IMG/VR virus record: IMGVR_UViG_3300010883_000051
Coordinates: 1 to 49,149 of that record
Length of the DNA stretch: 49,149 nt
Source: a virus
Reading direction: 5' to 3' (one strand)
A model generated the notes under the pieces. It saw nothing but the letters and a program-made list of their open reading frames with translations. It did no database searches and had not been told where the DNA came from. The translations under genes were made by a program, and so were the position numbers. Below, one piece after another: positions 13,195 through 49,149 of this stretch (its first letter is position 1; each line of letters starts with the position of its first letter).

Positions 13195-14379
13195 ATGGAA
13201 GAACAAAACGATAATTCTATAAAAATAGACGTACCCCTAGAGGGTCAAGCCGGACAAGGGGTAGTCGGCTACAATAACCCATCTGGACCAGATCTATCCC
13301 TGCCAGACATTCCCATGCCTGTTCCACAGTCGGAGCAGACAGTTGAAGTGAAGGACGAGATTGATGTGGCATTCAAGTTCGCATTTATTGGCTCTGGACA
13401 AGGGGGGTCAAGAATAGCTGAGACTTTTCACGGTTTGGGTTATAGAAAAATTGCGGTTCTAAACACTGCCGAGCAGGATTTGAATACGGTTAATTTGAAC
13501 AATAAACTTTGCATTGGCGAAGGGGGCGCGGGGAAAGATCCCGAAGTGGCCAAAAAGGTATTCGCAGAAAGAAAAGAAGATGTAATAGATTTCATGAGAT
13601 ATTCTTTCGGCGAAGAGCTCGATAGAATTATGGTTTGTGCAGGCGCTGGTGGCGGAACCGGAGGTGGCACTGTGGTGCCATTGGTTCGCGCTGCTAAAGA
13701 ACTACAAGAGACACTTGGATGCTCCACTTCTAAAGTAGGAGTGATCTTAGCTTTGCCGAAAGCTTCAGAAGGCAAGAAGGTCAACGCTAATGCTCATGAT
13801 TGCCTAAAAGAAGTCTACGCGTTAGTTAAGGAGGGCGTGGTTTCTCCTTTGGTGGTTATCGACAACGAAAGGATAGGAAAAGTATACCCGAACCTTGTGG
13901 TGTCAAATTTTTGGCAAACCGCTAATATGAGTATGGCTGGACTTTTCCATCTATTTAATTTGACTGCGGCTAGAGACAGCTCTTATACCGCATTTGACGC
14001 GAATGATTATAAGAACGTCCTAGACTCAGGGCTCATGGTTTTTGGAGCAGCGCCAGTTTCTGATTGGGAAAATCCCGTCAGTATTTCTAGGGCCGTAAGA
14101 GACAATTTCAATAGTGGAGTGCTGTCTGGAGGAATAGACTTGTCTACTGGCAATTGCGCTGGAGCAATTGTCGTTGGGGGGCAGAGACAATTAGATAATA
14201 TACCTCAAGCTAACCTAGACCAAGCCTTTGACCAGCTGTGTCGGATGCTTTCCGCTGGAAACGTTGTGCACAGGGGGATTTACTCCGGGGATAAAGATAG
14301 CCTCACCGTATTTACAACAATTGGTGGCTTAGCAAGCCCTGACGAAAAACTTAAGGAGCTTAAGAAGCTCGGAGTATAA
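13195..14379 (+). CDS. FtsZ/tubulin-family GTPase
   Basis: A 394-aa member of the tubulin/FtsZ superfamily. After a 60-residue polar N-terminal extension comes the first glycine loop GSGQGGSRIAE (66-76). The tubulin signature is AGAGGGTGGGT (149-159), and the T7-loop acidic pair is D268 and D271 in AFDANDYK, matching the DxxD of FtsZ that completes the neighbouring active site. So polymerisation-coupled GTP hydrolysis should be intact. The C-terminus is short (LKELKKLGV) and lacks an FtsZ-type FtsA/ZipA-binding tail. Phage tubulins (PhuZ, TubZ) position DNA or capsids; this one lies inside the structural operon, next to a small membrane protein. Confidence 0.85.
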   Translation: MEEQNDNSIKIDVPLEGQAGQGVVGYNNPSGPDLSLPDIPMPVPQSEQTVEVKDEIDVAFKFAFIGSGQGGSRIAETFHGLGYRKIAVLNTAEQDLNTVNLNNKLCIGEGGAGKDPEVAKKVFAERKEDVIDFMRYSFGEELDRIMVCAGAGGGTGGGTVVPLVRAAKELQETLGCSTSKVGVILALPKASEGKKVNANAHDCLKEVYALVKEGVVSPLVVIDNERIGKVYPNLVVSNFWQTANMSMAGLFHLFNLTAARDSSYTAFDANDYKNVLDSGLMVFGAAPVSDWENPVSISRAVRDNFNSGVLSGGIDLSTGNCAGAIVVGGQRQLDNIPQANLDQAFDQLCRMLSAGNVVHRGIYSGDKDSLTVFTTIGGLASPDEKLKELKKLGV

Positions 14380-22722: not shown

Positions 22723-25700
22723 ATGGCTCAAAAGGAAGTATCTGTACAGCTTACCCAGTCGAGTGCAACTGTAGAAGCTGCAACTTCTGCTGGTGCAAAC
22801 GTTGCGCAGTCTACTTCCAGCGCTATAGTAACTAGCGCCAAATCAGCAGGAGCACAGACTATCATGGCTGGGCCTCAGGGGCCAGCAGGGCCATCTGGTA
22901 TATCTGGCATGCAAGGCGTATCCGGTATGTCTGGCACAGGTCCGATAGGACCAAGTGGAGCTACTGGAACCTCTGGCATTTCTGGAAGGCAAGGAGAACA
23001 AGGTTCTCAGGGCGACCAAGGCGGCCAAGGGATTCAGGGTCCAAGCGGAGCCACAGGAGTCTCGGGTATTTCTGGAACGCAGGGCATCCAAGGCCCTTCT
23101 GGAGCTACTGGCATTTCGGGTATTTCTGGAATGCAAGGAGGACAGGGTATTCAAGGCATCCAAGGCGACCAAGGCGACCAAGGCGATCAAGGAATTCTGG
23201 GGCCAAGCGGGGCTACGGGAATTATAGGAGCCACGGGCAGCCAAGGCCCTATAGGACCGCATATCACAGGAATTAGTGGTAGTGGGACAGGGGTAAGCTT
23301 CTTTGTCTCTGGAGGAGGCATCCTCGGGCCAATAAACATACAAGGACCAAGCGGTGCGACAGGCACTAGTGGAATATCAGGGTTAAAAGGAGACTCGGGA
23401 CCTCAAGGAGATGTCGGAAGTGCTGGACCAACGGGCCCTCAGGGCTCGCAAGGGGATCAAGGCCTCGTTGGTGGAGATACTTTCAACTTCTATTTTGGTA
23501 CAGACACCACAGACACAGACCCTACAAATGGATATTTAAAATTTGGCAACTCAACCTATCCGAGCATAACCGAAATATATGTCGATGATATGGAAAAGGG
23601 TGGAGACTCCATAACTAACTGGGTCGATGCCCTAGATGACGTTTATCAATCAAGAATAAAAGTTTTTTCGGCTAGTGACGCAGAAAAGTGGGCGGTCTTC
23701 AAAGTAGTTTCGGACAACACCGCAAAGGTCGGCTATACCCAAATCAATGTTAATTATATAGCTCATAGCGATTTATTCGTGGTAGACGAAGAGGTAGCAA
23801 TGACTTTTGCGCCAGCCGCACAAGGCCCGAAGGGGGATACTGGACCGACGGGGCCGGGAGGCGCTCAAGGCGATCAGGGGGATCAAGGGGTTGCTGGAAC
23901 TAGCGGCATTGGAATCACTGGTATAAGTGGGAGCGGAACAGGGGTAAGCTTTTTATTATCTGGCGGCGGAACTCTTGGTCCAATAAATATACAGGGCCCA
24001 TCTGGTTTATCTGGTTTATCTGGAATATCAGGAACGCCGGGAGGTCTAGGAAGCGCAGGCCCTCAAGGAGCTCAAGGTGACAAAGGCGACCAAGGCGACC
24101 AAGGCGACCAAGGAATTCAGGGAATCCAAGGACCAAGCGGGGCCACAGGAGCCATAGGAGCCGTGGGGGCGCACATTACAGGCGTAAGTGGTAGTGGGAC
24201 AGAGGTAAGCTTTTTACTCTCTGGAGGAGACGTTCTGAAGCCAGTAAATATACAAGGGCCCTCTGGGCTTACAGGAATCTCCGGAATGCCGGGAGGGCTA
24301 GGAAGCGCGGGTCCCCAAGGCGATCAAGGAATCCAAGGGTCGCAAGGCATACAAGGAACCCAAGGAAACCAAGGTCTTGTTGGCGGAGATAGCTTCGATT
24401 TTTATTGGACTACTGATACGGTAGTTTCTGACCCCGGAAATGGATACATAAAGTTTGATAATTCAACTTATCCAAATGTACAAAAAGTTTTAGTTGATGA
24501 CCTAGAAAAAGGAGGGGATTCAATAATCGATTGGGTTAATTCTTTGGATCACGTAACCGGCTCTAGAATAAAAATATTCGACTCGGCCACTGCCGAAAAA
24601 TGGGCCGTATTTAGGATAGGAAAAGATAATACTGCTGGAGCAGGATACACCCAGCTTAATGTTAATTATATAGCTCATAGTGACTCTTTCACGTTAAACG
24701 AGGCAGTCACATTAACCTATGCACCAGCGGCCAGTGGAGCACCGGGGGGTGCCGGACCAGCAGGGCCTTCGGGAGCTACAGGCGCGCTGGGCGCACAGGG
24801 GCCAGCCGGCGCAGATAGTACCGTAGCGGGGCCCGCAGGAGCTACAGGAGCTACAGGAGCTACAGGCGCGGCAGGACAGGGAACAGGGGACTTCGGTGGA
24901 GACAGTTTCAGTTTCTATTATAACAGCGGGCACACAGCGGCTCATTGGGCCGATGGACCGGGAGACAGCGGATTTAAGTTCTTCGCCTCAGCTGTTCCAT
25001 CCGACACGACAGGCATAGATATATCTTATTTTAATCATCGCGGAGGTGCCGTTTCTGGCTGGCTTCTAGATTTTGGAAATTATGGTGACGAAACAAATAG
25101 AGGTATATTAAAAATATTTACAAGAGATAAAGTAAATGAAAATTGGTCGTCATTTAAGATTACTGGCAATCCCGCATTCCGCGTTACAATACCCAAAACG
25201 TCAGCACCTTGGGTAAACCTAGGAGCTTCATGGAGAACCTCTTCGGAGCAGCAGATTCCCGGTTCGGAGGAGAACTTCCCGTTTACTCATTCCGGGGAAA
25301 CCGTGATCTCTTTTGTTCCTGCTGGCCCCACCGGGCAGGTAGGGGGCATTGGTGCTGCAGGGGTCACGGGGGCCACGGGGGCGGGATTATCGGGGGCAAC
25401 TGGAGATTTCGGGGGCGATAGTTTCAGTTTCATTTTTAATACTGGCTGGGCAGCAGGAAATCCCGCCGTGGGGGGAGTTCATCCCGGCGACTTTAACGTA
25501 AGACTAATGGGCCCGCTCCCTGATCCCACACATGAGGACATCACAGGAATGTCCATATCGGAGAAGAATTACAATGATGTCTTTGTCCAAGATTGGATCA
25601 CCGATTGGTATAATCATGGCTCATCAACCGGAGCAGGGCACGGTAGAATAAAAATATTTCCAAGAGGACAAGTCAATGATACCTTTGCTGGCTACACAAT

Positions 25701-26946
25701 TACCGGGGACAAGGTCTACAGCAGCGATACCCCGGCGTATTTTACTGTAGGGTTGAAATATGTGTATGGAACAAACGACCTCATCGGTCAGAATCATGGT
25801 GGAGAAACCGTGGTTACTTTTGTTGGCGCGGGAGCTTCTGGCGCAGCAGGCGCTTCTGGCGCAGCAGGCGCTGCTGGAGGAGGCGGCGGTGGCGCAGGAG
25901 CTCCGGCCACAGGATATACTGGCGCATTTCAACTGCACGCCGCAAACCTGAAGCCCCAACATCCCGGTGAATCATTGATCCCGGGAACACTAACTGGTTC
26001 AAATGTGCTATTCGAAGGATGGATACATGACGCATCGACCAACAGCACCTTAATGATTCCGTCAAATCAAGTCGGAATAGGCGTGACATTTGGAACAGAG
26101 GGAGGCGCTTTGGGCAATATAGCCAAGGTGGGTGCAGATTATTTTGACAACTACGCCAATACCGGTTACGAATACCCCAGCATGTCAGGGGCGCTTGATG
26201 TAAGGGGAGATGTCTGGACTAGTGGCCATATCATTCCCCACGCAAGCGGAGGCTATAACCTAGGAAGAGGCGACGGAGTGCCACGAGTCGGCGGCGCGGC
26301 GGCGGGACTGTGGTGGAACAACGTATACGCAAATAGCGGGGTATTTTTAGGCGTAGGTTGCTCGTCAATTGATGTTACAGGGCCCGGCGCAAGGGTTTCT
26401 GTAAGTAATCAGTCGACGCTTTCGTACCTAAAAATCGAAAGCCCTTCAGGGATTTTTCAATCGGGTATAACCTTAAAAAGCGATACTGCTGGCACATATT
26501 TTGACGTACATGATGATGGTAGCCTAGGAGGCGCAGGAGACATGACATTCTGTGGTCAAGTTAATCAATGCGTAGAAGACTTGGGGGATTTTACCACAAC
26601 CGGATGGACACCGGACCCATATGGTATAGGCATGGGTGGTACTGGATTCAGCATAAATATGGCTGGCAGCAACATGAAGAAATTCAACTTACGCAATCAT
26701 GCTCGCGGGCTTAATTTGACGAACATAAAGGCTGGGCGTTCAGTGACAATCCAGATCACAGCAGGCCTCGACGGGGTGGGCGGCGATAGTTATTACAGAT
26801 TTTTAAGCGGCAACAACCTCAATTTTGTGGGAATTGAGCCGCATACCCTAAAGAAGGGAAAAGTGGGGCTACTGACAATAACCGCATACGGCACAGGCGC
26901 TAGCTCTTGCGTTTGTCACTGGGCTGAATCGGATTACACGGTTTAA
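22723..26946 (+). CDS. Collagen-like tail fibre, 1407 aa
   Basis: A giant fibre. The N-terminal 47 residues are Ala/Ser/Thr-rich. From residue 48 Gly-X-Y tracts (GPQGPAGPSG, GIQGPSGATG types) form collagen-like stalks. They are interrupted by four related beta modules that begin GGD[ST]F at residues 250, 554, 725 and 897; the first two are close copies. A linker HITGISGSGTG...GPINIQGPSG occurs three times (from about residue 180). After a Gly/Ala tract near 1045-1065 a 340-residue head follows, with YNLGRGDG and NNVYANSGVFLG, typical of fibre tips. It likely mediates host or surface binding. Internal duplication is evident. Confidence 0.85.
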   Translation: MAQKEVSVQLTQSSATVEAATSAGANVAQSTSSAIVTSAKSAGAQTIMAGPQGPAGPSGISGMQGVSGMSGTGPIGPSGATGTSGISGRQGEQGSQGDQGGQGIQGPSGATGVSGISGTQGIQGPSGATGISGISGMQGGQGIQGIQGDQGDQGDQGILGPSGATGIIGATGSQGPIGPHITGISGSGTGVSFFVSGGGILGPINIQGPSGATGTSGISGLKGDSGPQGDVGSAGPTGPQGSQGDQGLVGGDTFNFYFGTDTTDTDPTNGYLKFGNSTYPSITEIYVDDMEKGGDSITNWVDALDDVYQSRIKVFSASDAEKWAVFKVVSDNTAKVGYTQINVNYIAHSDLFVVDEEVAMTFAPAAQGPKGDTGPTGPGGAQGDQGDQGVAGTSGIGITGISGSGTGVSFLLSGGGTLGPINIQGPSGLSGLSGISGTPGGLGSAGPQGAQGDKGDQGDQGDQGIQGIQGPSGATGAIGAVGAHITGVSGSGTEVSFLLSGGDVLKPVNIQGPSGLTGISGMPGGLGSAGPQGDQGIQGSQGIQGTQGNQGLVGGDSFDFYWTTDTVVSDPGNGYIKFDNSTYPNVQKVLVDDLEKGGDSIIDWVNSLDHVTGSRIKIFDSATAEKWAVFRIGKDNTAGAGYTQLNVNYIAHSDSFTLNEAVTLTYAPAASGAPGGAGPAGPSGATGALGAQGPAGADSTVAGPAGATGATGATGAAGQGTGDFGGDSFSFYYNSGHTAAHWADGPGDSGFKFFASAVPSDTTGIDISYFNHRGGAVSGWLLDFGNYGDETNRGILKIFTRDKVNENWSSFKITGNPAFRVTIPKTSAPWVNLGASWRTSSEQQIPGSEENFPFTHSGETVISFVPAGPTGQVGGIGAAGVTGATGAGLSGATGDFGGDSFSFIFNTGWAAGNPAVGGVHPGDFNVRLMGPLPDPTHEDITGMSISEKNYNDVFVQDWITDWYNHGSSTGAGHGRIKIFPRGQVNDTFAGYTITGDKVYSSDTPAYFTVGLKYVYGTNDLIGQNHGGETVVTFVGAGASGAAGASGAAGAAGGGGGGAGAPATGYTGAFQLHAANLKPQHPGESLIPGTLTGSNVLFEGWIHDASTNSTLMIPSNQVGIGVTFGTEGGALGNIAKVGADYFDNYANTGYEYPSMSGALDVRGDVWTSGHIIPHASGGYNLGRGDGVPRVGGAAAGLWWNNVYANSGVFLGVGCSSIDVTGPGARVSVSNQSTLSYLKIESPSGIFQSGITLKSDTAGTYFDVHDDGSLGGAGDMTFCGQVNQCVEDLGDFTTTGWTPDPYGIGMGGTGFSINMAGSNMKKFNLRNHARGLNLTNIKAGRSVTIQITAGLDGVGGDSYYRFLSGNNLNFVGIEPHTLKKGKVGLLTITAYGTGASSCVCHWAESDYTV

Positions 26947-30270: not shown

Positions 30271-32549
30271 AAGAACCACCCGAACAGTATACGCTGGCTC
30301 TGGGAGACGTGATAGTTGGCTTACGCAAACTAGACGACGGAACATTTGCGCCCAAAAATTCCAAAATTTTCAACTCCGTTCTAATCAAAAATGAAAAATC
30401 ATACCTAACGGATAGGTTCAGAGTTTGCCTATCTACAGCAAACCGAGAAGAGGATATTCTAAATATACTGAACGATATAGAAGAAAAAATGGAAGGTAAA
30501 AAATGGATTTTCTTCGCTGCCGATTATTCGAAGGGCGATGAGGCTTTCGAAAAAATAAAGCAACACACAACCTCTGCGGGTTCATTTTTCCCGATAAAGC
30601 TTAAACACTGTAAGGACGAGTTGTCCGCCGAAAAGGCTATAGGTAAAATATCTGACATCTACGAAGAAGAGTATCCATATAAGTTAAATTTTAGAAAAGA
30701 AAACTCCTCAAAAATTGACCACAAAATACAAAGCTTTTGCTTCGTAGCTACAAAAGAAGTAAAAGAAGAGGCAGCAATTCTGATTAAAAGCCTCAGGGGA
30801 TTTCATTCTGAGCCAATATATATTGTTTGCGACAAGGAAACTGAACATTTCTTATCATGCATGAACGCGGACTTGAGTGATGTTTTCTTCAGGCTCGAAA
30901 TGGAACAGAAGGTTTTAGACGCTATAGACAAAAAATATAATTTTGAAAGAAAAAATAATTATCACCGGCCAGAATGCATCATAAAAAAAATGGACTGCAT
31001 GAGTTACGCCTTGGAAAACCACGACAACGTGTTCTTTTTGGATAGCGACATGATTGTGTTAGATTCTCTTCAGGAGAAGTTCGACAAAGACATTTTCCTG
31101 TCTCCCCACTATCACAAGACGGGCACACCCGACTCGAACAATTCTATTGATTATGGGTTCTTTAATGCAGGGTACGTGTTTTGTGCGAATTCAGATTTGC
31201 CAAATTTCTGGAAGGACACTTATATAAATGATTCTGATTTTTTTGAACAAGAATGCATGAACCAAATATGTGAGAAATTTGATGTCGGATTTTTTAGTAA
31301 CCGTCACAACGTAGGGTTTTGGAGAAAAAACTTTAATGCAAAAATTGAACCAAAAAGTATACATGTCCACGCGGTAGATAACAAAAATTTACAAAGGAAC
31401 GCTAGACTCAAATCAGAAAACAATAAATTAAAATCAAAAACAATTAAACTGCTGCGGTCTAGCGAAAACGAAAACCATCACGAGATATTAGAATTTATAA
31501 ATAAAATAGATAGCGGGTGGGGAGGGAAGCAAGAGAATTTTAAGTTCCAAGCATCGAACCCTGAAGGAAAAATAAACTTAGGCTTACAAACCGTTTTCGA
31601 TTCACATAGGAGCGGCTGGAAATATGCTGTGAGCGCACTGGCTCCTTTGCACAACAACAATGGAGTTTTGCTAGACGGATTCTTAGAGAATAATTTCGCT
31701 TGGCATTTAGAAGAGTACAGGAGAGAAAAAAAAGTTATACCTTACAAAACCCCTTGGGTTGGGTTTTTCCATAACCCACAGAACATGCCGCCTTGGTTTT
31801 TCAACAAGTATTCCTTACAGAACATTATCGCAGGAGGTGAGTTCCAAGAAAGCCTCGAGCATTGCGTGGGGCTATTCACGTTATCGGAATATCATGCAGA
31901 ATACCTAAGGGAAACAACCGGCAAGACGGTATGCTCCCTTATTCATCCAACAGAAATACCTGAAACTCTTTTCGACTATGATAAATTTTTAAAAAATAAA
32001 AACAAACAAATAGTGAACATCGGTTATTGGCTAAGAAAATTGAATTCGATCTACTCAATTCCCATCGCCTCAGGAAACGAATACACCAAACTTAGGCTGA
32101 TTCCCTATTCTTCCGCTACGCCGTTGGAAGTAATAAGCGAGATGCTGGAAAAGGAAAAGGTTATATACGATATACAAATAGAACAAAAATACATAGATAA
32201 TACGACAACAAAAAGCTCCCTCTCCAACGAGGACTACGATGCGCTTCTTTCTGAAAATATAGTCTTCCTTGACCTTTATGATTCTAGCGCAAATAATGCA
32301 GTAATAGAGTGCATTGCGCGGGCAACGCCGCTCCTTGTTAATCCATTACCTGCGGTGACGGAATACTTAGGCGAGGATTATCCACTTTATTATAATTCAT
32401 TAGAGGAATGCGCGGAAAAAGCGGAGGACCTAGGTCTCATTAAAGAAGCTCATGGATACCTTAAAGATTGCGAAATCAGAAAAAAATTATCTCAAGAGCA
32501 TTTTAGAAAGTCGTTTGAAAAAAGCGAAGTATACGATCTATTAAAATGA
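30258..32549 (+). CDS. Two-part glycosyltransferase, 763 aa
   Basis: Residues 1-150 are unassigned. About 155-400 resembles a GT8-type nucleotide-diphospho-sugar transferase: IQSFCFVATKEVKEEAAILIKSL, and the DxD motif FLDSDMIVL (D262/D264) with FFNAGYVFC downstream. The remainder, from about residue 430, resembles a GT4/GT-B enzyme: PWVGFFHNPQNMP, CVGLFTLSEYHAEYL and the C-terminal donor-binding pattern NNAVIECIARATPLLVNPLPAVTEYLG. So two sugar transfers may be combined in one chain. It opens the modification island; targets could be fibres, host glycans or a small peptide (unknown). Confidence 0.7.
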   Translation: MESIKEPPEQYTLALGDVIVGLRKLDDGTFAPKNSKIFNSVLIKNEKSYLTDRFRVCLSTANREEDILNILNDIEEKMEGKKWIFFAADYSKGDEAFEKIKQHTTSAGSFFPIKLKHCKDELSAEKAIGKISDIYEEEYPYKLNFRKENSSKIDHKIQSFCFVATKEVKEEAAILIKSLRGFHSEPIYIVCDKETEHFLSCMNADLSDVFFRLEMEQKVLDAIDKKYNFERKNNYHRPECIIKKMDCMSYALENHDNVFFLDSDMIVLDSLQEKFDKDIFLSPHYHKTGTPDSNNSIDYGFFNAGYVFCANSDLPNFWKDTYINDSDFFEQECMNQICEKFDVGFFSNRHNVGFWRKNFNAKIEPKSIHVHAVDNKNLQRNARLKSENNKLKSKTIKLLRSSENENHHEILEFINKIDSGWGGKQENFKFQASNPEGKINLGLQTVFDSHRSGWKYAVSALAPLHNNNGVLLDGFLENNFAWHLEEYRREKKVIPYKTPWVGFFHNPQNMPPWFFNKYSLQNIIAGGEFQESLEHCVGLFTLSEYHAEYLRETTGKTVCSLIHPTEIPETLFDYDKFLKNKNKQIVNIGYWLRKLNSIYSIPIASGNEYTKLRLIPYSSATPLEVISEMLEKEKVIYDIQIEQKYIDNTTTKSSLSNEDYDALLSENIVFLDLYDSSANNAVIECIARATPLLVNPLPAVTEYLGEDYPLYYNSLEECAEKAEDLGLIKEAHGYLKDCEIRKKLSQEHFRKSFEKSEVYDLLK

Positions 32550-33682
32550 ACGGGGATAAAAGACATGAAATGGGTGTGCGTAAAAGGCTCAGGAAAGATA
32601 AATTCCTAGAGTCCGAAGGGATAGTTAATACCCCCAGAAAGTCAGAAGGAAAATTTTGCAAGAATCCATTCGACCAGTTTGAAATTCATCCTGATGGCGC
32701 AGTGTCTGTTTGCTGCATGAGTTGGCTTCCTGAAAAAATAGGAAACGCAAAAGAAAAAGAGATTGGGAAAATTTTTAATTCGGAAAAAGCACAAGACATA
32801 AGAAAAAGCATACTAGACGGTTCTTTCAAATATTGCGATCACAAACTATGCCCATACATACAGAACGGATCTTTGCCGAACAAGGAGGAGGTTACTGATC
32901 CTCGTCATAAATCAATTATAAAAAACAACCAAACAAAAGACCTTGAGCCGACGTTTTATAATCTTTGCTATGATGAGTCCTGTAATTTAAGCTGCCCAAG
33001 CTGTAGAAAAAATAAGATTCTTTATTACGAGGGCAAAGTTTATGAGGAAAAGAAAAAAATACAAGATAATATAATAAAACATATCTTCGGAAAGCCTCAC
33101 GACAATTACTGCCTTATTAACGTAACTGGCTCGGGAGACCCATTCGGATCGAAGCTTTTTAGGGAACTGTTGTTTAGCATAGATGGGGAAAAATTTCCTA
33201 GGGTATTTTTTAATCTACAGACAAACGGGGTAATGTTCACTCCCAAATATTGGGAGAAGATGAAAAAGATACAAAAGAACATTAATACAGTAATGGTTTC
33301 GTATGACGCAGGTACACCGGAAACATATAATGTTACTCGTAGAGGTGGAGACTGGAACAGGCTTCAAGAAAATATGAAATTTCTAAGTTCTTTAAGACAA
33401 GGAAATCTTATTAATGAATTGAGAATTGATTGTGTCGTTCAACAAAAAAATTATAAAGAGCTATACAAATTAATAAAAATCGGTATAGATTTAAAAGTAG
33501 ATAAAGTGTATTTTTCTCTATTGGTTGATTGGGGTACGTGGCCGGTCCAAGTATACGAACAAAATTGTATTTGGAAAGATACACATCCAGAGTTCAAAGA
33601 ATTTATAAAAATTTTAGAGAATCCAATTTTTGATAACCCTATAGTAGAGCTTGGAAACCTAACAGGATATCGAAATGATTAA
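32546..33682 (+). CDS. Radical SAM enzyme with N-terminal SPASM-like domain, copy 1
   Basis: A 378-aa enzyme. The radical SAM signature CNLSCPSC holds C146, C150 and C153. It is followed by VTGSGDPFG, LQTNGVMF and VSYDAGTPETYNVTRRGGDW, the usual order of the partial TIM barrel. Before it lies a cysteine region C38, C56-C57, C97 and C102 with IHPDGAVSVCC and KYCDHKLCP, which looks like a SPASM/auxiliary-cluster unit placed N-terminally rather than C-terminally. It would use SAM and FeS clusters to modify a peptide or sugar. The ATG overlaps the transferase stop (ATGA). A paralogue lies at 34994-36346. Confidence 0.75.
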   Translation: MNGDKRHEMGVRKRLRKDKFLESEGIVNTPRKSEGKFCKNPFDQFEIHPDGAVSVCCMSWLPEKIGNAKEKEIGKIFNSEKAQDIRKSILDGSFKYCDHKLCPYIQNGSLPNKEEVTDPRHKSIIKNNQTKDLEPTFYNLCYDESCNLSCPSCRKNKILYYEGKVYEEKKKIQDNIIKHIFGKPHDNYCLINVTGSGDPFGSKLFRELLFSIDGEKFPRVFFNLQTNGVMFTPKYWEKMKKIQKNINTVMVSYDAGTPETYNVTRRGGDWNRLQENMKFLSSLRQGNLINELRIDCVVQQKNYKELYKLIKIGIDLKVDKVYFSLLVDWGTWPVQVYEQNCIWKDTHPEFKEFIKILENPIFDNPIVELGNLTGYRND

Positions 33683-35007: not shown

Positions 35008-36346
35008 AATTTATTGCACCAGAGCTTTTGATCATGTTCAATTATTGGACAATGGAGAAATGACACCATGTTGTCCTCCGTGGGTTGATCATTATTCTAT
35101 AGGCAATATAAATGAACAATCATATGAGGAAATTTGGAATGGCGAAAAAGCTCAAAAATTTAGGGAGTCCATATTAGACGGCTCTTTTCGATATTGTAAC
35201 GCTAAGTCTTGCCCGCACTTAGAGTCCAGAACTAGTTATGTAGGGACACTGGCGCAACTAAAGAAACGCGAAGTAAGTGACTCTACATTATACGATATAC
35301 AATCTCAAAGCGTGATCTTAGATCATGGCCCCCGTGAAATACAATTCTGCTATGACAGGTCATGCAACCTATCTTGCCCGTCATGCAGAAGAGAAATAAT
35401 AATGGTTGCTGGTGAAAAAAAGCAGAAGCTGTTAGACATGCAAAGTAAGCTGCAAATGAATTTCTTGAAAGACGCGGATCGGCTTGTTGTTACCGGGTCT
35501 GGAGATGCGTTTGCCAGCCCTATCTTTCGAAAATTTCTACAAACATTCACAAAAGAACAAGCGCCCAAGCTGCGGCATATAAATATATTAACAAACGGCT
35601 TACTCATTAAGAAGTACTGGGCAACGCTTAGTGAGTATACCAAGGAAAAAATTCAATACATTAGCGTATCTATAGACGCAGCAACGCCAGAAACATACGC
35701 TATAAACAGGAGGGGTGGAGACTGGAATCTGCTACATGAAAATTTAAAATTTGTTGAAAACCTAAGAGCCACTAATAAAATTAAAGCATTTCAGGTTAGC
35801 ATGGTGGTGCAGGATAATAATTTTCGTGAGCTATTAGATTTTATCTTAATGTGTGAAAAATATAAAGTGGACTCTGTTCAATTACAAATTATTGAACCAG
35901 ACTTCATACGAGATTTGGGATACGGTGATTATCTTAAAGAATGGGTTCAAAAAGCGGTCCATGAAAAAAATCACCCTAATCATAACGAATTGTTGAATAT
36001 ACTTAAAGATGATTTTTTCAATATTTACATAGATAGAAGCAACGGTAAAGCTCCGGCTGGAACAGCGGTTATAATGGGGCAGCTATTTGATTTAAGAAAT
36101 GGTAATGATATTTCTCAATATGACCAACTGCTTGTAGAAGAAAAAGAGCTAAAAAGAATTAAAGACGGGTTAGCGCTAGCTGAGAAAGGTTTATTAAAAG
36201 ATATTTGGTTTGAGGGTGAGGCTTATTTTATCGCCTTAGATGCCGTGAAAAAAATAAACGGAACCGACGTGGCCGAGCTACCAACTGGAGAAACGGTCAT
36301 CTGGGACGAAGATAAAGAGAAGTGGGCAAAATACCATGCCTATTAA
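34994..36346 (+). CDS. Radical SAM enzyme with N-terminal SPASM-like domain, copy 2
   Basis: A 450-aa paralogue of the enzyme at 32546. I start at the ATG at 34994, inside the end of the sulfotransferase gene. N-terminal cysteines C8, C26-C27, C68 and C73 (LDNGEMTPCCPPW, RYCNAKSCP) match the first copy. The radical SAM site CNLSCPSC has C124, C128 and C131. VTGSGDAFA, ILTNGLLI and VSIDAATPETYAINRRGGDW follow. A C-terminal extension of about 95 residues (QLFDLRNGNDISQYDQLL onward) is absent from copy 1 and may recognise the substrate. Confidence 0.75.
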   Translation: MSSNKIYCTRAFDHVQLLDNGEMTPCCPPWVDHYSIGNINEQSYEEIWNGEKAQKFRESILDGSFRYCNAKSCPHLESRTSYVGTLAQLKKREVSDSTLYDIQSQSVILDHGPREIQFCYDRSCNLSCPSCRREIIMVAGEKKQKLLDMQSKLQMNFLKDADRLVVTGSGDAFASPIFRKFLQTFTKEQAPKLRHINILTNGLLIKKYWATLSEYTKEKIQYISVSIDAATPETYAINRRGGDWNLLHENLKFVENLRATNKIKAFQVSMVVQDNNFRELLDFILMCEKYKVDSVQLQIIEPDFIRDLGYGDYLKEWVQKAVHEKNHPNHNELLNILKDDFFNIYIDRSNGKAPAGTAVIMGQLFDLRNGNDISQYDQLLVEEKELKRIKDGLALAEKGLLKDIWFEGEAYFIALDAVKKINGTDVAELPTGETVIWDEDKEKWAKYHAY

Positions 36347-37007
36347 CAGAAAAAGCGAGTTGCTCTTCATTCACATCCCCAAAACAGGCGGAACAAAAAT
36401 AGAAGAAATACTAGATATGAAATTCGCGGGGGATGACCCTAAGGTTTCAAGCGAAAAACTATATGGGTTTGTAAGAATATACGACGAGCTCCATGAACTA
36501 CAGCACTTAACATACAAACAAACATTAGATTTTGGGCTGGTCGACAAAAGCCTGTTCGATAAATGCTATAAATTCGCATTCGTCAGAAATCCGCTTGACA
36601 GGGTCGTGTCTGAATATTTTTGGTTAGGATACAAATACTTTTCTAAGTTCGAGGACTTCGTTGAGTTTTTACATAAGAGAAAAGGAGAACCGGATGTTCG
36701 CGGTACTGTAGAAAATTACATGTCTCTCGACTGGCTTTTAAATTCCCCCTTCTATGCGCCCCAACATAAATTCATTTGCGACAGAAGAGGTAAATTAATG
36801 GTTGATTTTTTAGGCAGATTTGAAAACTTCCCTAAAGATTTAGCTACCCTATTGGACAATCTAGGGGTGGAATACGACGAAGAATTTTTATTTAAAAAAG
36901 TAAACGCTACTAAACACGAAAAATACGACACTTACTACAACAAAAAAACAAGAGATATGGTTAAATCCATATATAAGAGAGATTTCGAAATATTTGGTTA
37001 CGAATAA
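36336..37007 (+). CDS. Sulfotransferase, copy 2
   Basis: A 223-aa sulfotransferase with textbook motifs: HIPKTGGTKIEEIL (5'-phosphosulfate loop, residues 13-26) and FVRNPLDRVVSEYF (3'-phosphate motif, 82-95), and a C-terminal YKRDFEIFGYE block also found in copy 1. It overlaps the second radical SAM gene by 11 bases, so the four genes behave as a tight unit. A GTGTAAA motif starts directly at its stop codon and serves the next module. Confidence 0.8.
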   Translation: MPINRKSELLFIHIPKTGGTKIEEILDMKFAGDDPKVSSEKLYGFVRIYDELHELQHLTYKQTLDFGLVDKSLFDKCYKFAFVRNPLDRVVSEYFWLGYKYFSKFEDFVEFLHKRKGEPDVRGTVENYMSLDWLLNSPFYAPQHKFICDRRGKLMVDFLGRFENFPKDLATLLDNLGVEYDEEFLFKKVNATKHEKYDTYYNKKTRDMVKSIYKRDFEIFGYE

Positions 37008-43541: not shown

Positions 43542-46500
43542 ATGGCGGATAGTTTTATCACACTAGGAACAAGGTTAGATAGCGCGTCACTACAAGCTAC
43601 TTTAAGGCAAATAAACGGCGCTATTACCCGGGTAGAAAGGCGAGGGGTTAACGTTAGCGTTGACTCCGGGAAATTTACTAGGCCCCTTGGGAAAATCACT
43701 GGTGCCACAAATGAATTCACAAGATCACTCGAAGCATCAAATGCACGTGTTTTAGCGTTTGGAGCTTCTGCTGGGGCGATTTTTCAAGTTCAAAGGGCAT
43801 TTGAATTTTTACTTAAAAGTACTATTGAAGTCGAGAAAAGACTTCAGGATGTCAATGTAATTTTAGCACAAACAGATCGAGGTCTCGCAAAATTCGGGAA
43901 CAGCCTTTTCGCAATAGCGCAAAAAACGGCACAGAGTTTCGATACTGTCGCTGAAGCAGCGACAGAATTAGCTAGGCAAGGCTTGTCAACTGAAGAGACT
44001 CTTCAGAGAACAAGCGACGCTCTCATCCTTACGAGACTTTCCGGTATGGATGCGGCAGCATCAGTTTCTTCCTTAACGGCGGCATTAAATACATTCAATA
44101 GGGAGGCGTTAAGTTCTACTCAGGTAATTAATAAGCTTGCTAATGTAGATGCGGCGTTTGCGGTAAGCACAGATGATTTAGCTCAATCCATGAGACGCGT
44201 GGGAAGTACTGCTCAGGACGTTGGCGTATCCTTCGACCAACTTCTTGCAATTACAGCTTCTGTTCAGCAAACAACGGCCCGTGGTGGTCCCGTGATTGGT
44301 AACGCGTTAAAAAGTATATTTACAAGAATCCAAAGAAAAGACACCCTTAATCTCTTGGAGGAGTTAGGGGTAAAGGTGAGGGACTTAGAGGGGCAAATGA
44401 TGCCCGCAATGAATGTCCTTGGCAATTTGGCCAAAAAGTTTCCTACGCTATCTAAGGCTCAACAAGCTCATACTGCTGAGGTGACCGCTGGCGTATTCCA
44501 AATGAATAACTTAAGAGCGATACTCGCTGATCTTGGGCAAGAATATTCAATTTACGATAAGGCCGTGAAGGTATCGACAGGGTCGACAAACGAAGCAATA
44601 TTAAGAAATGAGCTACTCAACAAAACCCTCGACGCTCAAGTAAAGAAGACGATGGCTCTAGCCACGCAGGCAGCAAAGAAAATAGGAGACCTAACCTTGA
44701 GACCTGTCACAGAGAGAGTGGTTGGGATCATGCAGAAAGTTTTGGGCGACATTAATGAGAAAGATACGAGTGACATAGGCGGAAAGATAGCGCAAGGAAT
44801 GATGTCCGGAATTGGAAATTTTTTACAAGGCCCGGGGCTGCTTTTGATAACTGGATTCCTTGGAAAACTCGGAATGAATTTAGCAAAATTCGTCAAGGAA
44901 TCAGGAGCCCAATTCATGGGGTTGAACACCGCTGCTGTGCAACAAAAAAGCTTACAAGAAGGGATCGCAAGGATATTAGAAGCGCAGCCGGGGCTCATCA
45001 AACAAGCGGCTTCGTCGACACAAGGGAGGGTCAATGCAGAAAGAGAAGTCGTCGGAATACTCGAGCAAGAGACTCTTATGATGCAAAACATGGAGAAGGT
45101 TGCCTCAAGAATGGCTGGCATGATGGTGAGGGGTGGGGTAACCGTAAGTGGCGGAGGACAAGTACAAGCACCGACGCATATGAGGCCTAGGGGTGCAGCG
45201 CAGGGGCATATACCGAATTTTAATAAGAGACAAAGTGCTGTAAGCGAAATAATAAGCGCAGCAGAAGGCGGGTATAGAGCAGGAGCTATAAAACAGATGA
45301 AAATGCCCGGGCTCGGGACAATGACCTATAACTCAAGAGAACAGGTCAAACATGTCGCCGGCTTTGCTCAGCCATTCATTAATCCACCACAGCACTCGAA
45401 GGCCGGTAGGAAACATAAAGAAAAAGCAATGGCTAAAACCGGTGTCGATCCTTATGCGGTTCCAAATTTTGCCAACCCAGCTTACCTAAATTTATATGGT
45501 CGGGGTAAGATGGGGCTGGGCACCGTAAGTCTACCCGGCAAAGGAGCCGCTGCTTCCTTAGAGAACTTTGGGGTAGGAAGATTTTATAAATCCGGACCAA
45601 AAGTCCCCAAAGGTCAAAAAAATATATTAAGGACCGCTTATGATCACGCGTTAGCGGGCCATGGTGTATCAGGCGTAAAGGGAAAAATAGCGCTAGGAGA
45701 AATAGGAGAAGTAGCAGTTGCAAGAGCTACAATGCCAACTGATGTTGCAAAACGATTTTATAATGATCTATTGTCTCCGGCGGTTAGCGGAGCGATAGGC
45801 CGCCGCAGCTTTACTGATGCACTTGGGGGGAAAGACAACGCGTCGCGTATAGCGCAAGATATAGTATACCATCCAAGCGGAACAGCGCGGTCATTCATAG
45901 GATCAAGAGAAAGGGCGATGGATTTGCTTGCGTCAAATCCCTCCGCTAAAGGTTCATTTTTCGCAAAGGCAGAAATAACTCATTCTACTTTATTAGAAAA
46001 AGCCCTTATGGAACGCGGTGGCGGTCATCAATTTATGCCATTCAGCAAGGTGAAGATGGGGCAAGGAGAGACAATTCTAGACGCGGTAAGTATAAAAGGA
46101 GGAAAAATAATTGGACCCGCTGAATTCAAACCAAGTTTTCACGCGGGAATGCCCGGCAGAGATGCTAGAGGAAGCCTTTCGTACAAGTCGTTATTCTCTT
46201 CTGACTCGGGCAAAGAGGGCGGACTATTACATTTTTTACGGTCAGGAATGGAAAAGAATATTGCCCGCGGTGGCTACAAAGATAAATCTGGTCAATTCCA
46301 TAGCCCAGAGAAGTTGAAGGGCGATATAACAAAATTAGATAATTATGTAGATACCGCAAAAACGGCAGACTTCCAAAGAATGCAAAAAGTTTCCCAAGGG
46401 GAAATTTCGCTTGAGGGAGCTAAATCCGCAACAGCAGTAAAAGATATTTTTGGCAAGGACGTAATGAAGCTCCTTCAGGGGACCCCGTCTGCATCAAATT

Positions 46501-49149
46501 ATGATAAATTAATGATGCATTTTGGTGCGGCCCAAGGTTTCATTCCTAATTTCCCACGGGGAGGACCAATCATGGGGGGCCGTGGAAAAGGAAACATTTT
46601 CGATTTTGATGGGACGTTGGGAGTACCCCCAAAAGGGATGGTTACCACCCCAACAGGCAAGAGAAAAATGCGAGAAGGGGATACGTGGCATGGTTGGTCT
46701 GTCGGTCATATGGAACCAACTAAATTAGCGAATGCAGCCTCAAAAAATAAAGAGCCAATAACAGTTTTAACCGCAAGAGGGCAAGATTCAGTTCCATATA
46801 TCCAGAGTTGGTTAAAGGCCCAAAAAATTCCATACAGTGAAGTAATAGCTACTGGAAGCAGGAAATACCCCAAAGGGATAGAGAAAACCCACCAGAAGAA
46901 GGCCTATGAAATTTTTGAACGCCCACATTTACAAAACGCAAAGTTCTATGAAGATTCACGGGCAAACGCATATTACGCGGCACTAAGAGGTGCAAGCAAA
47001 GATATGAATATACAGCCCCGAATAGTAGATTTTGGCAGCCGTTGGGGGCAGGTTAATCCAGCTGGCCAAGGGTTCCTTCCGAATTTCAGTAAAGGTTCAC
47101 CACTAGCGGATGCGTTTAGAAGGGAAAAGAAAGCTTCTGGGTTACCTGAGAGTCAACTTTATGCAGCTTCTGTAGACACCCCAGAATACAAAGGTTTAGC
47201 GGTAGGAAATAAGAGAGATGAGCGGACAAAGGGAGATCTAGTTAGAGCCGTCAAGTCTCACCCGAACCCAGCAAAAGCAGGCATGAAGGCAAGCGGGGGT
47301 TATATACCTAACTATGCCGCAGATAGCGTTGACTACATGGCTATGACGTCAGGAATGATGATGGCGGGAATGATGATGAACATGGGTGGGTCCTCCGCTG
47401 AAGAAAAAAGTATGCTGCGAGATCAAAAGGCGGGCTTCGAAAAAGAAAAAGATATACAGAGAAAAGCAAAAGCAGCTGCTAAAAATCAAGAGAAAGAGCA
47501 AAAAAACCAAGAACGAGAAAAAACTAGATTACAAAAGGAGGTCAAGACTGCTGATCGCGATGTTCAGAAGGCGACCAAGAGCCGAATGGAGGCCAAATTC
47601 GGAACGAGAACCACTCCGGGGGGGGAGAGAACGGGAGGCATAAAGCAAGCTGAAGCGGCGCAGCAAAAAGCAGCAGATAGAGTAGTCCGAAGAGAAGTAA
47701 ACAGGGCAATAATGCACGGTGGCACGCCAAGGACTCTGCGCGGGGGTGCCCCAATTCCCACTGGCGCTACACCCGCAAGAATTGCGGGACTGGGAATGAC
47801 TGGGTTACGCGCAGAGCGAGGCACCGTTGGTGGCGTTCCCGGAATAAATCCTTCTACTGGTCGTCCACACACTGGCTCATACAACGCGAAAATCGAAGCG
47901 CTAAGAGGGGTTGGGCATGCAAGAGCGCAACAAATAATTTCACAATCCGTAGATACTTCAGGAAGAACCCCAAGGGGATCCGTCGGCGAACATTCCGGCG
48001 ATAAAGCAGCCAAGGACCTAACCAAAAAAACCTTACTTCTTCAAAAGGCGAGAGAGGCTGAAGCCCGCGCTACTGATCGAGTAAATGCAGCACAGAGCAA
48101 AAAGGCCGCCGCTCAGGCAAAGATTTGGGCGCAAGATAAAGAAATAGCAAAGACCTCAAGGAAAGTAGCCAACGCAAAGAATGCAGAAGCAAAAGCTGCA
48201 GGAAAGGTTGCAGCACTAAAACCGGACACAAAAGGTGCCGTCAGTAAGTGGGTCAAAGGAAAAGGCTTTGGACTGGGAATAGGTATCCAAATGATGGCTG
48301 GAGTGGCCGAACAATTTGTGGGGGGCAAGGGCGAGACCCCAGAAGAAAGAGCAGAAAAAGCAAAAGTTAGAGGGGTTGGCACCGCGGCGGGAATGGCCGG
48401 AACTGGCGCAATGATTGGCGGTCCTTGGGGCGCGGCCATTGGCTTAGCTATTGGTTCGGGGCTGGCGCTCATGGACCATCAAAAAGCCAGCAAGAAAACA
48501 GCAGAAGACTACGCAAAAGCTATTCAAAAAGAGACGGAGTCGAGAAAGAAAGCCTTACTCGGCGCGGAGGCTTATATTAAAATGCAGGGGAGATTAACCG
48601 GCATGTTTAATAGGGGCGCTGGTCCCGCCGAAACGGGGATGATGCGCAGACAAATGAGAGAACAACTCATGGAAATCGAGAATCCGGAACTAAGGAGAGA
48701 GCTAATTGGTGCGGCTGGTGATGAAAGCAAAATGCGAGAAGCCATGGCTAAAGTGCAGGAAACTATTAGCATGGAGGAAAAGAAAGCTTCGGTGGGCATA
48801 TTATCGGCAAAAGCAGGGGAAGGCGGCGCAGCGCAAAAAGGAGTAATGAAGGACTTGGCGAAAACCTTATCTGCTGCATTCGAATTAAAAGGAATTAAGA
48901 GTTGGGAACTCATGGGTAAATCCGGTGCTGATCTAACGGCAAAACTTGAAGAAATGGGCGTTGGCGCTAAAGAAGCTGCAGACATGATAGAAGCGCTTGG
49001 AGAAGAAAATCGAGGTCTTGTACCTCAAATACTAGCTCAAGCCCGAGGATATGAAGAGCTCGAAGCAGAAACTTCAAAATCTGTAGAATCGATAGAAAGG
49101 ATGGCGCTAGCTACGGCTGATCTAAACTATAGGTTATCACAAATATCAA
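43542..49149 (+). CDS. Tape-measure protein with embedded enzyme-like domains, partial
   Basis: An open frame of at least 1869 codons that runs off the window. Residues 1-450 match the phage tape-measure core (VAEAATELARQGLS, LAQSMRRVGSTAQDVGVSFDQLLAI, GGPVIGNALKSIFTRI). Residues 555-1260 carry five G-[FYH]-[ILV]-P-N-[FY] type motifs (at about 555, 638, 999, 1177, 1253) that flank a PD-(D/E)XK-like nuclease region and a HAD-like region. Then come a charged coiled coil and glycine-rich hydrophobic stretches (about 1590-1645: GIGIQMMAGVAEQFVGG, GTGAMIGGPWGAAIGLAIGSG) that could insert into a membrane. It sets tail length and is likely ejected with the DNA. The C-terminus is missing. Confidence 0.85.
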   Translation, partial: MADSFITLGTRLDSASLQATLRQINGAITRVERRGVNVSVDSGKFTRPLGKITGATNEFTRSLEASNARVLAFGASAGAIFQVQRAFEFLLKSTIEVEKRLQDVNVILAQTDRGLAKFGNSLFAIAQKTAQSFDTVAEAATELARQGLSTEETLQRTSDALILTRLSGMDAAASVSSLTAALNTFNREALSSTQVINKLANVDAAFAVSTDDLAQSMRRVGSTAQDVGVSFDQLLAITASVQQTTARGGPVIGNALKSIFTRIQRKDTLNLLEELGVKVRDLEGQMMPAMNVLGNLAKKFPTLSKAQQAHTAEVTAGVFQMNNLRAILADLGQEYSIYDKAVKVSTGSTNEAILRNELLNKTLDAQVKKTMALATQAAKKIGDLTLRPVTERVVGIMQKVLGDINEKDTSDIGGKIAQGMMSGIGNFLQGPGLLLITGFLGKLGMNLAKFVKESGAQFMGLNTAAVQQKSLQEGIARILEAQPGLIKQAASSTQGRVNAEREVVGILEQETLMMQNMEKVASRMAGMMVRGGVTVSGGGQVQAPTHMRPRGAAQGHIPNFNKRQSAVSEIISAAEGGYRAGAIKQMKMPGLGTMTYNSREQVKHVAGFAQPFINPPQHSKAGRKHKEKAMAKTGVDPYAVPNFANPAYLNLYGRGKMGLGTVSLPGKGAAASLENFGVGRFYKSGPKVPKGQKNILRTAYDHALAGHGVSGVKGKIALGEIGEVAVARATMPTDVAKRFYNDLLSPAVSGAIGRRSFTDALGGKDNASRIAQDIVYHPSGTARSFIGSRERAMDLLASNPSAKGSFFAKAEITHSTLLEKALMERGGGHQFMPFSKVKMGQGETILDAVSIKGGKIIGPAEFKPSFHAGMPGRDARGSLSYKSLFSSDSGKEGGLLHFLRSGMEKNIARGGYKDKSGQFHSPEKLKGDITKLDNYVDTAKTADFQRMQKVSQGEISLEGAKSATAVKDIFGKDVMKLLQGTPSASNYDKLMMHFGAAQGFIPNFPRGGPIMGGRGKGNIFDFDGTLGVPPKGMVTTPTGKRKMREGDTWHGWSVGHMEPTKLANAASKNKEPITVLTARGQDSVPYIQSWLKAQKIPYSEVIATGSRKYPKGIEKTHQKKAYEIFERPHLQNAKFYEDSRANAYYAALRGASKDMNIQPRIVDFGSRWGQVNPAGQGFLPNFSKGSPLADAFRREKKASGLPESQLYAASVDTPEYKGLAVGNKRDERTKGDLVRAVKSHPNPAKAGMKASGGYIPNYAADSVDYMAMTSGMMMAGMMMNMGGSSAEEKSMLRDQKAGFEKEKDIQRKAKAAAKNQEKEQKNQEREKTRLQKEVKTADRDVQKATKSRMEAKFGTRTTPGGERTGGIKQAEAAQQKAADRVVRREVNRAIMHGGTPRTLRGGAPIPTGATPARIAGLGMTGLRAERGTVGGVPGINPSTGRPHTGSYNAKIEALRGVGHARAQQIISQSVDTSGRTPRGSVGEHSGDKAAKDLTKKTLLLQKAREAEARATDRVNAAQSKKAAAQAKIWAQDKEIAKTSRKVANAKNAEAKAAGKVAALKPDTKGAVSKWVKGKGFGLGIGIQMMAGVAEQFVGGKGETPEERAEKAKVRGVGTAAGMAGTGAMIGGPWGAAIGLAIGSGLALMDHQKASKKTAEDYAKAIQKETESRKKALLGAEAYIKMQGRLTGMFNRGAGPAETGMMRRQMREQLMEIENPELRRELIGAAGDESKMREAMAKVQETISMEEKKASVGILSAKAGEGGAAQKGVMKDLAKTLSAAFELKGIKSWELMGKSGADLTAKLEEMGVGAKEAADMIEALGEENRGLVPQILAQARGYEELEAETSKSVESIERMALATADLNYRLSQIS
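45690..46140 (+). other. PD-(D/E)XK nuclease-like domain in the tape measure
   Basis: Between the second and third PNF motifs: a helix LGEIGEVAVA (E720/E723), then, after a mixed region, ETILDAVSIKGGK with D847 and, 14 residues on, AEFKPS with E861 and K863. A helix glutamate, then D and E-x-K across a beta hairpin is the classic arrangement of this nuclease fold. The extent of the domain is approximate, and activity is not proven. Confidence 0.5.
46590..47040 (+). other. HAD-like phosphatase domain in the tape measure
   Basis: Between the third and fourth PNF motifs: motif I FDFDGTL (nucleophile D1021, acid/base D1023), motif II ITVLTARG (T1077), a Lys-rich helix IEKTHQKKAYEI that can supply motif III, and motif IV KFYEDSRAN (D1138). 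The order and spacing match HAD phosphatases, and the short cap recalls polynucleotide 3'-phosphatases or nucleotidases. All four motifs look intact. Confidence 0.7.

What the first reader, a model, noticed from the sequence alone, without database searches (positions are those of the whole stretch)
45204..47318. Tape-measure protein carries nuclease-like and HAD-phosphatase-like domains between repeated PNF motifs
Seen: five G-[FYH]-[ILV]-P-N-[FY] motifs punctuate about 700 residues in the tape-measure frame. The two long intervals contain a D..ExK nuclease-type core (D847, E861, K863) and a HAD core with all four motifs (D1021/D1023, T1077, Lys helix, D1138). Known: tape measures leave the virion with the DNA, and some carry lytic or pore domains. 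Inference: the PNF units may be linkers, folding caps or cleavage sites that let enzymes be packed in the tail tube and delivered to the host at infection. A nuclease plus an end-trimming phosphatase could attack host DNA or process phage DNA ends. A modular tail cargo system of this sort is not one I recognise as described.
Basis: partly seen in the sequence, partly recalled or inferred. Interest (0 to 1): 0.88.

Follow-up and report, generated by a model that had tools for sequence, protein, structure and literature searches.

The report
Phage tape-measure protein with swappable enzyme slots
In many uncultured phages, the protein that sets tail length also carries a row of interchangeable enzyme-like domains separated by one short recurring motif, which suggests the tail doubles as a magazine of effectors delivered into the bacterium with the DNA (delivery is inferred, not shown).

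Summary
The window's tape-measure protein (TMP, 43542-49148) has four exact PNF motifs and one degenerate one, bounding a D..ExK slot and a HAD slot. Motif-based scans gave 278 ORFs with 866 such motifs (0.05 expected). Of 167 whose N-terminal part is held, 154 share this TMP's N-terminal domain. Between motifs lie 401 segments in 115 sequence families: PD-(D/E)XK-like (commonest), HAD, GNAT, SNase, GHKL, P-loop, and, by motif or eye, kinase-like and ADP-ribosyltransferase-like. Phages with 92-97% identical TMP N-termini carry unrelated domains in the same slot. DNA homology breaks at the motif: 63% of 590 homology ends lie within 12 nt of it, against 5.5% by chance. The motif uses 80 synonymous spellings, so it is kept as protein. 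The HAD call is well supported and looks PNKP-like. The window's nuclease call rests on motif alone because its structure prediction failed. Packaging, delivery, activity and the motif's role are inferred. The literature searched holds related ideas (polyvalent proteins, lytic TMP domains, TMP-derived effectors of contractile injection systems) but not this arrangement; a 2023 survey could not confirm recent TMP mosaicism. New variant of a known kind; high interest.

The parts
43542..49148 (+). Tape-measure protein ORF, 1869 aa seen, runs off the record end; more than 3700 aa in two close relatives
43917..44477 (+). PhageMin_Tail domain (residues 126-312), conserved TMP N-terminal part
   Evidence: PF10145 E=1.1e-32; TMP N-terminal homology shared by 154 of 167 PNF ORFs whose N-part is held
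45204..45221 (+). PNF motif 1, GHIPNF (555-560)
45222..45452 (+). First spacer module (M1), about 77 aa, family seen in 20 PNF TMPs of the first sample
45453..45470 (+). PNF motif 2, degenerate YAVPNF (638-643)
45471..46535 (+). Slot 1: predicted PD-(D/E)XK-type nuclease (D847, E861, K863; GE at 719-720)
   Evidence: motif only; 82-83% identity to L001/L002 with the residues kept; AF2 failed
46536..46553 (+). PNF motif 3, GFIPNF (999-1004)
46554..47069 (+). Slot 2: HAD phosphatase-like domain (D1021/D1023, T1077, K1115, D1138), PNKP 3'-phosphatase-like
47070..47087 (+). PNF motif 4, GFLPNF (1177-1182)
47088..47297 (+). Closing CAP module, about 70 aa, shared by 47 PNF TMPs of the first sample; predicted alpha-beta-beta-alpha core
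47298..47315 (+). PNF motif 5, GYIPNY (1253-1258)

Best explanation
This tape-measure protein carries a cargo bay. Between its conserved N-terminal TMP domain and its long remaining part, a series of enzyme-like domains is inserted, each bounded by the recurring motif A-[AS]-x-G-[FY]-[IV]-P-N-F-A, and the series is closed by a conserved ~70-residue CAP module. Domains are gained, lost and swapped between related phages as whole cassettes whose edges are the PNF motifs (shown). In this phage the cargo is a predicted PD-(D/E)XK nuclease and a HAD phosphatase of the PNKP-like kind (predicted). The cargo is most likely carried in the virion tail, enters the cell with the TMP at ejection, and acts in the first moments of infection on host or competitor nucleic acids or on defence signals (inferred). 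PNF is most likely a recognition sequence, used to release or position each domain, rather than a passive linker (inferred: it is conserved residue by residue while its codons and neighbours vary).
For: 866 motifs in 278 ORFs against 0.05 expected; 154 of 167 share the TMP N-domain, always upstream of the first PNF. 401 segments in 115 families; 61 cargo combinations in 139 ORFs, 103 of them with a PD-(D/E)XK-like module. Swaps: L020 vs L089 N-part 97% identical, slot 1 unrelated, slot 2 91%, cap 100%; L103 vs L089 95/unrelated/76/97%; L012 vs L089 92/unrelated/64/91%. DNA breakpoints at PNF codons and slot gain/loss between two PNFs; 63% of 590 homology ends within 12 nt of a motif vs 5.5% random. 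80 DNA spellings of GFIPNF at 242 sites. Nuclease families: G-x-x-[FY]-E, D, [DE]-x-K nearly invariant in 100 and 39 sequences. HAD motif in PNF-bounded intervals of 17 TMPs; PNK-like hits. Pfam GNAT, SNase, GHKL hits in slots. Purifying selection on both window slots, dN/dS 0.19-0.43.
Against: No virion proteomics, no isolate and no assay; delivery and activity are inferred. The window's nuclease fold is not confirmed, and no curated family or solved structure names the common nuclease module. Fold matches of the HAD model are weak (best E 0.05 in PDB, 0.002 in BFVD). The breakpoint statistic is inflated where a conserved motif is merely flanked by diverged sequence, and its pairs are not independent. 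Loci were sampled by the motif itself. Whether folded 150-350 aa domains fit a tail tube is unknown.
Confidence: 0.62

Rival explanations
1. PNF sites are proteolytic processing sites: the TMP is a polyprotein whose cargo is cut into separate enzymes, in the producing cell or after ejection, leaving a shorter TMP to measure the tail.
For: Short strict motif with flanking alanines repeated at every domain boundary; a head-maturation-type ClpP protease is encoded in the phage; some slots elsewhere carry HExxH metallopeptidase-like motifs, a theme of polyvalent proteins.
Against: No protease has been linked to the motif; the ClpP-type protease is ordinary in phages; the motif is degenerate at some positions of close relatives (GFIPNL, GLIPSF in L001).
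Confidence: 0.35
2. PNF units are docking or folding elements: each motif binds the tube lumen, a tail chaperone or the neighbouring module so that cargo can be threaded and packed without cutting.
For: Aromatic, hydrophobic motif conserved as protein; the last motif is predicted as a short strand at the end of the CAP module, at low confidence.
Against: The inter-domain motif between HAD and CAP is in a low-confidence stretch of the model; no partner identified.
Confidence: 0.35
3. The slots are only fast-evolving, non-enzymatic TMP sequence, and the apparent enzymes are chance motifs.
For: TMPs diverge fast; most slot families have no named relative.
Against: Nearly invariant catalytic signatures in 139 segments; Pfam hits to GNAT, SNase and GHKL; recurrent HAD cores flush after PNF; whole-cassette swaps between near-identical TMPs.
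Confidence: 0.05
4. PNF codons are primarily a DNA recombination site (a seam for cassette exchange) with no protein role.
For: Homology breaks sit at the motif.
Against: 80 different 18-mers encode GFIPNF at 242 sites, so DNA sequence is not what is conserved.
Confidence: 0.05

Closest known systems
Polyvalent proteins of phages and conjugative elements (Iyer et al. 2017, PMC5512222)
   Same: Long proteins with several enzyme domains (including ART, GNAT, nuclease, metallopeptidase), inferred to be injected with the DNA through the phage tail
   Different: The word 'tape' does not occur in the paper; no recurrent boundary motif or slot exchange within a TMP was found described. Here the cargo sits inside the TMP itself
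TMPs with virion-associated lysin domains (T5 pb2, TM4; reviewed in PMC6116005)
   Same: An enzymatic domain embedded in a tape-measure protein and ejected with it
   Different: Those domains act on peptidoglycan; here the slots hold nuclease-, phosphatase-, acetyltransferase- and kinase-like domains in PNF-bounded cassettes
Sle1-type TMP-derived effectors of actinobacterial contractile injection systems (PMC13277306)
   Same: A TMP-related backbone with exchangeable functional domains, packaged in a tail-like particle
   Different: The replaced functional module of Sle1 is C-terminal and belongs to a contractile injection system; here several internal slots in phage TMPs, with a shared boundary motif
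Polymorphic toxins and modular T6SS effectors (PMC3482391; PoNe DNase, PMC6688995)
   Same: Shared delivery part plus highly variable enzyme domains, often PD-(D/E)XK nucleases
   Different: Multiple internal slots rather than one C-terminal toxin; phage rather than bacterial antagonism; immunity genes not examined
Phage protein mosaicism survey (Smug et al. 2023, PMC10684548)
   Same: Reports a sequence-level mosaic signal in tape-measure proteins
   Different: States that no genuine recent case could be confirmed in TMPs; the swaps here are such cases

Membership tests
Tail tape-measure protein (PhageMin_Tail) | N-terminal PhageMin_Tail / TMP homology | tested here: met
   PF10145 E=1.1e-32; PHROG TMP families to 3.6e-50
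Tail tape-measure protein (PhageMin_Tail) | Very long ORF downstream of tail genes and tail-assembly chaperones | tested here: inconclusive
   Long ORF met (>3700 aa in relatives); the upstream neighbours gave no family hit
PD-(D/E)XK nuclease (window slot 1) | D-x(n)-[DE]-x-K core | tested here: met
   D847, E861, K863; strict pattern in 0.45% of shuffles, loose in 22%
PD-(D/E)XK nuclease (window slot 1) | Restriction-endonuclease-like fold | tested here: inconclusive
   AF2 pLDDT 35; profile comparison with the common nuclease cargo negative
PD-(D/E)XK nuclease (common cargo families 0 and 1) | Conserved helix Glu, Asp, and [DE]-x-K | tested here: met
   E, D and K 97-100% conserved over 100 and 39 sequences; still no curated-family hit
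HAD superfamily phosphatase (window slot 2) | Motifs I (DxD), II (T), III (K), IV (acidic) | tested here: met
   Residues as reported; motifs I-III sit at the expected strand ends and helix in the model, motif IV in a low-confidence part
HAD superfamily phosphatase (window slot 2) | HAD fold | tested here: inconclusive
   Core pLDDT 67-77; top Foldseek hits mostly HAD phosphatases incl. Pnkp but none at E<=0.001
Polynucleotide kinase 3'-phosphatase | Sequence homology to PNKP phosphatase domain | tested here: inconclusive
   Weak hits in two sequence searches: phrog_415 E=0.0036, Aer_P220 E=0.008
Polyvalent proteins | Several effector-type domains in one polypeptide | tested here: met
   1-6 slots per TMP, 61 combinations
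Polyvalent proteins | Injected into the host with the DNA | not testable with these tools
   No virion or infection data
Polymorphic toxin systems | Variable toxin domain at the C-terminus | tested here: not met
   Variable domains are internal; >2400 aa of TMP follow in relatives
Polymorphic toxin systems | Adjacent immunity gene | not tested
   Not examined

The most novel reading that the evidence does not exclude
A large class of uncultured tailed phages uses the tape-measure protein as a cassette-loaded effector magazine: one short peptide motif defines interchangeable slots that accept unrelated enzyme domains, which are carried in the tail and released individually in the host ahead of or with the DNA.
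Probability: 0.5. Interest if true: 0.92.

Novelty: new variant of a known kind. Interest (0 to 1): 0.82.

Why it matters
If true, phage tails of this kind deliver not only DNA but a swappable set of enzymes, present before any phage gene is expressed, when defences strike first. It would give a rule, the PNF boundary, for finding many unnamed effector domains in metagenomes; supply confirmed recent domain mosaicism in TMPs, which an earlier survey looked for and could not confirm; and pose the testable question of how folded enzymes travel through a tail tube.

Tried and rejected
A mixed alignment meant to fold the whole 712-aa region misplaced short fragments and was discarded. Profile comparison of the window's nuclease slot with the other slot families and with the common nuclease core found nothing. 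Searches with HAD and nuclease alignments returned only the two close relatives. Cap-module searches of 50,697 isolate phage records found nothing; in genome contigs only six MAG contigs, too few to name a host. A pure DNA-recombination-site reading was rejected because the codons vary. PADLOC and NCBIfam gave only scattered weak hits. One call failed for a forbidden search term.

Full report
CHECKING THE OBSERVATION. The window is itself a whole IMG/VR virus record of 49,149 bases. The ORF at 43542-49148 runs off its end. It is a tape-measure protein: PhageMin_Tail matches residues 126-312 at E=1.1e-32, and many PHROG tape-measure families match, the best at 3.6e-50. Two relatives (L001, L002) have TMPs of more than 3700 residues, 82-92% identical in the two slots, with all the named residues kept. 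Both slots evolve under purifying selection (dN/dS 0.19-0.43).

IT IS A GENERAL ARCHITECTURE. The fetched stretches hold 278 ORFs with 866 strict motifs, where shuffling the same proteins gives 0.05; 235 of 278 have two or more. Of 167 ORFs whose N-terminal part is held, 154 match an HMM grown from this window's TMP N-terminus, and that match always precedes the first PNF. The motif consensus is A-[AS]-x-G-[FY]-[IV]-P-N-F-A. The usual order is TMP N-domain, often a ~77-residue module (M1), one to six cargo slots, a ~70-residue closing module (CAP or capB), then the rest of the TMP.

SLOTS ARE EXCHANGED AS CASSETTES. 401 inter-motif segments of 90 residues or more fall into 115 sequence families, 71 of them singletons; 139 ORFs show 61 different cargo combinations. 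TMPs nearly identical outside a slot differ wholly inside it: L020 vs L089 are 97% identical in the N-part, unrelated in slot 1, 91% in slot 2 and 100% in the cap; L103 vs L089 are 95%, unrelated, 76% and 97%; L012 vs L089 are 92%, unrelated, 64% and 91%; L095 vs L033 are 91% with an unrelated slot 1. At DNA level the homology of L020 and L089 ends at nt 1512, the last base of the PNF codons, and resumes at 2029, the first base of the next PNF; between L103 and L089 a whole extra slot sits between two PNFs. Over all ORFs, 63% of 590 distinct internal homology ends lie within 12 nt of a motif end, against 5.5% for random positions. Part of this excess could arise where a conserved motif is flanked by diverged sequence, and pairs are not independent; the named swaps do not suffer from this. 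GFIPNF is written by 80 different 18-mers at 242 sites, so selection is on the peptide.

WHAT THE SLOTS HOLD. The commonest cargo (families 0 and 1, 139 of 401 segments; 103 of 139 ORFs) has G-x-x-[FY]-E, D and K among its most conserved positions (97-100% for E, D and K), with [DE] two residues before the K in the aligned core, the signature of PD-(D/E)XK enzymes. No Pfam, PHROG or PDB sequence names it, so this is a motif-level call. Other slots give Pfam hits to GNAT acetyltransferases, SNase, GHKL ATPase, AAA and a cytidyltransferase-associated region; by eye or by simple motif there are P-loop, protein-kinase-like, ADP-ribosyltransferase-like and HExxH segments. A HAD motif I lies in PNF-bounded intervals of 17 TMPs, in 12 of them within 14 residues after a PNF.

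THE WINDOW'S OWN CARGO. Slot 2 is well supported as a HAD phosphatase: the motifs are present; its best sequence matches are polynucleotide kinases (phrog_415 E=0.0036; Aeromonas phage Aer_P220 annotated 3'-phosphatase/5'-kinase, E=0.008); an AF2 model has pLDDT 67-77 in the core with motifs I-III at the right strand ends and helix; and the best fold matches are HAD phosphatases including Pnkp1 in PDB (E 0.05-0.2) and HAD-like or PNKP-phosphatase proteins in the viral library (E 0.002-0.05). These E-values are weak one by one; their agreement is the argument. Slot 1 as a nuclease rests on D847-E861-K863 in a hydrophobic setting (strict pattern in 0.45% of shuffles, loose in 22%) and on the prevalence of PD-(D/E)XK-like cargo in other phages of this kind. 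Its structure prediction failed and its profile does not match the common nuclease core.

MECHANISM. Shown: cassette architecture, peptide-level conservation of PNF, swaps and slot gain/loss at PNF, catalytic signatures under purifying selection. Inferred: that the cargo is carried in the tail, enters the host with the TMP, and acts early. The inference leans on established knowledge that siphophage TMPs are ejected into the envelope and some carry peptidoglycan-cleaving domains (PMC6116005), that the lambda TMP is at the inner membrane during injection, where a host nuclease exploits it (PMC13190303), and that multi-enzyme phage proteins are thought to be injected (PMC5512222). A motif kept residue by residue at every domain boundary, with no common fold next to it, fits a recognition sequence, for cleavage or for docking; I cannot decide between them. 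A nuclease with a PNKP-like phosphatase could attack host or rival DNA and trim its ends, but joint action is speculation.

NOVELTY. Full-text searches of open papers found no description of this motif or arrangement; subscription papers and preprints were mostly not searched. The nearest published systems are polyvalent proteins, lytic TMP domains and Sle1-type TMP-derived effectors. Smug et al. 2023 saw a sequence-mosaic signal in TMPs but could not confirm any recent case. Two cap-module queries found no PNF TMP among 50,697 isolate phage records, and genome contigs gave only six MAG contigs, so hosts are unknown. I rate it a new variant of a known kind (injected multi-enzyme phage proteins) with an unusual, well-marked design.

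Noticed in passing
window 13195-14379 +: Tubulin/FtsZ-family GTPase (PF00091 E=2e-10) encoded close to the terminase gene; phage tubulins are best known from jumbo phages.
   Followed up: no
window 22723-26946 +: 1407-aa protein with six collagen triple-helix repeat stretches (PF01391), presumably a virion fibre.
   Followed up: no
window 32546-33682 + and 36336-37007 +: Radical SAM/SPASM protein, and a protein of the galactose-3-O-sulfotransferase family (phrog_3347); unusual modification enzymes in a virion-gene region.
   Followed up: no
L001 6330-17480 (far part of the TMP): A LysM-like stretch (HTILGGDTANAIAQTYGVSLDNLKGANPQI) in the later part of the relatives' TMP, beyond the window's end; seen by eye only.
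   Followed up: no
BFVD hits A0A6J5R419, A0A6J5NSI2, A0A6J5NAI8: Proteins of uncultured phages annotated prohead protease or XkdF match the HAD model in the fold search; HAD domains may be packaged there too.
   Followed up: no
L007, L065, L022, L063, L092 and others: A recurrent MYDWDGTI-type HAD cargo; in L007 and L065 it follows an HExxH metallopeptidase-like segment, a possible peptidase-phosphatase pair.
   Followed up: partly
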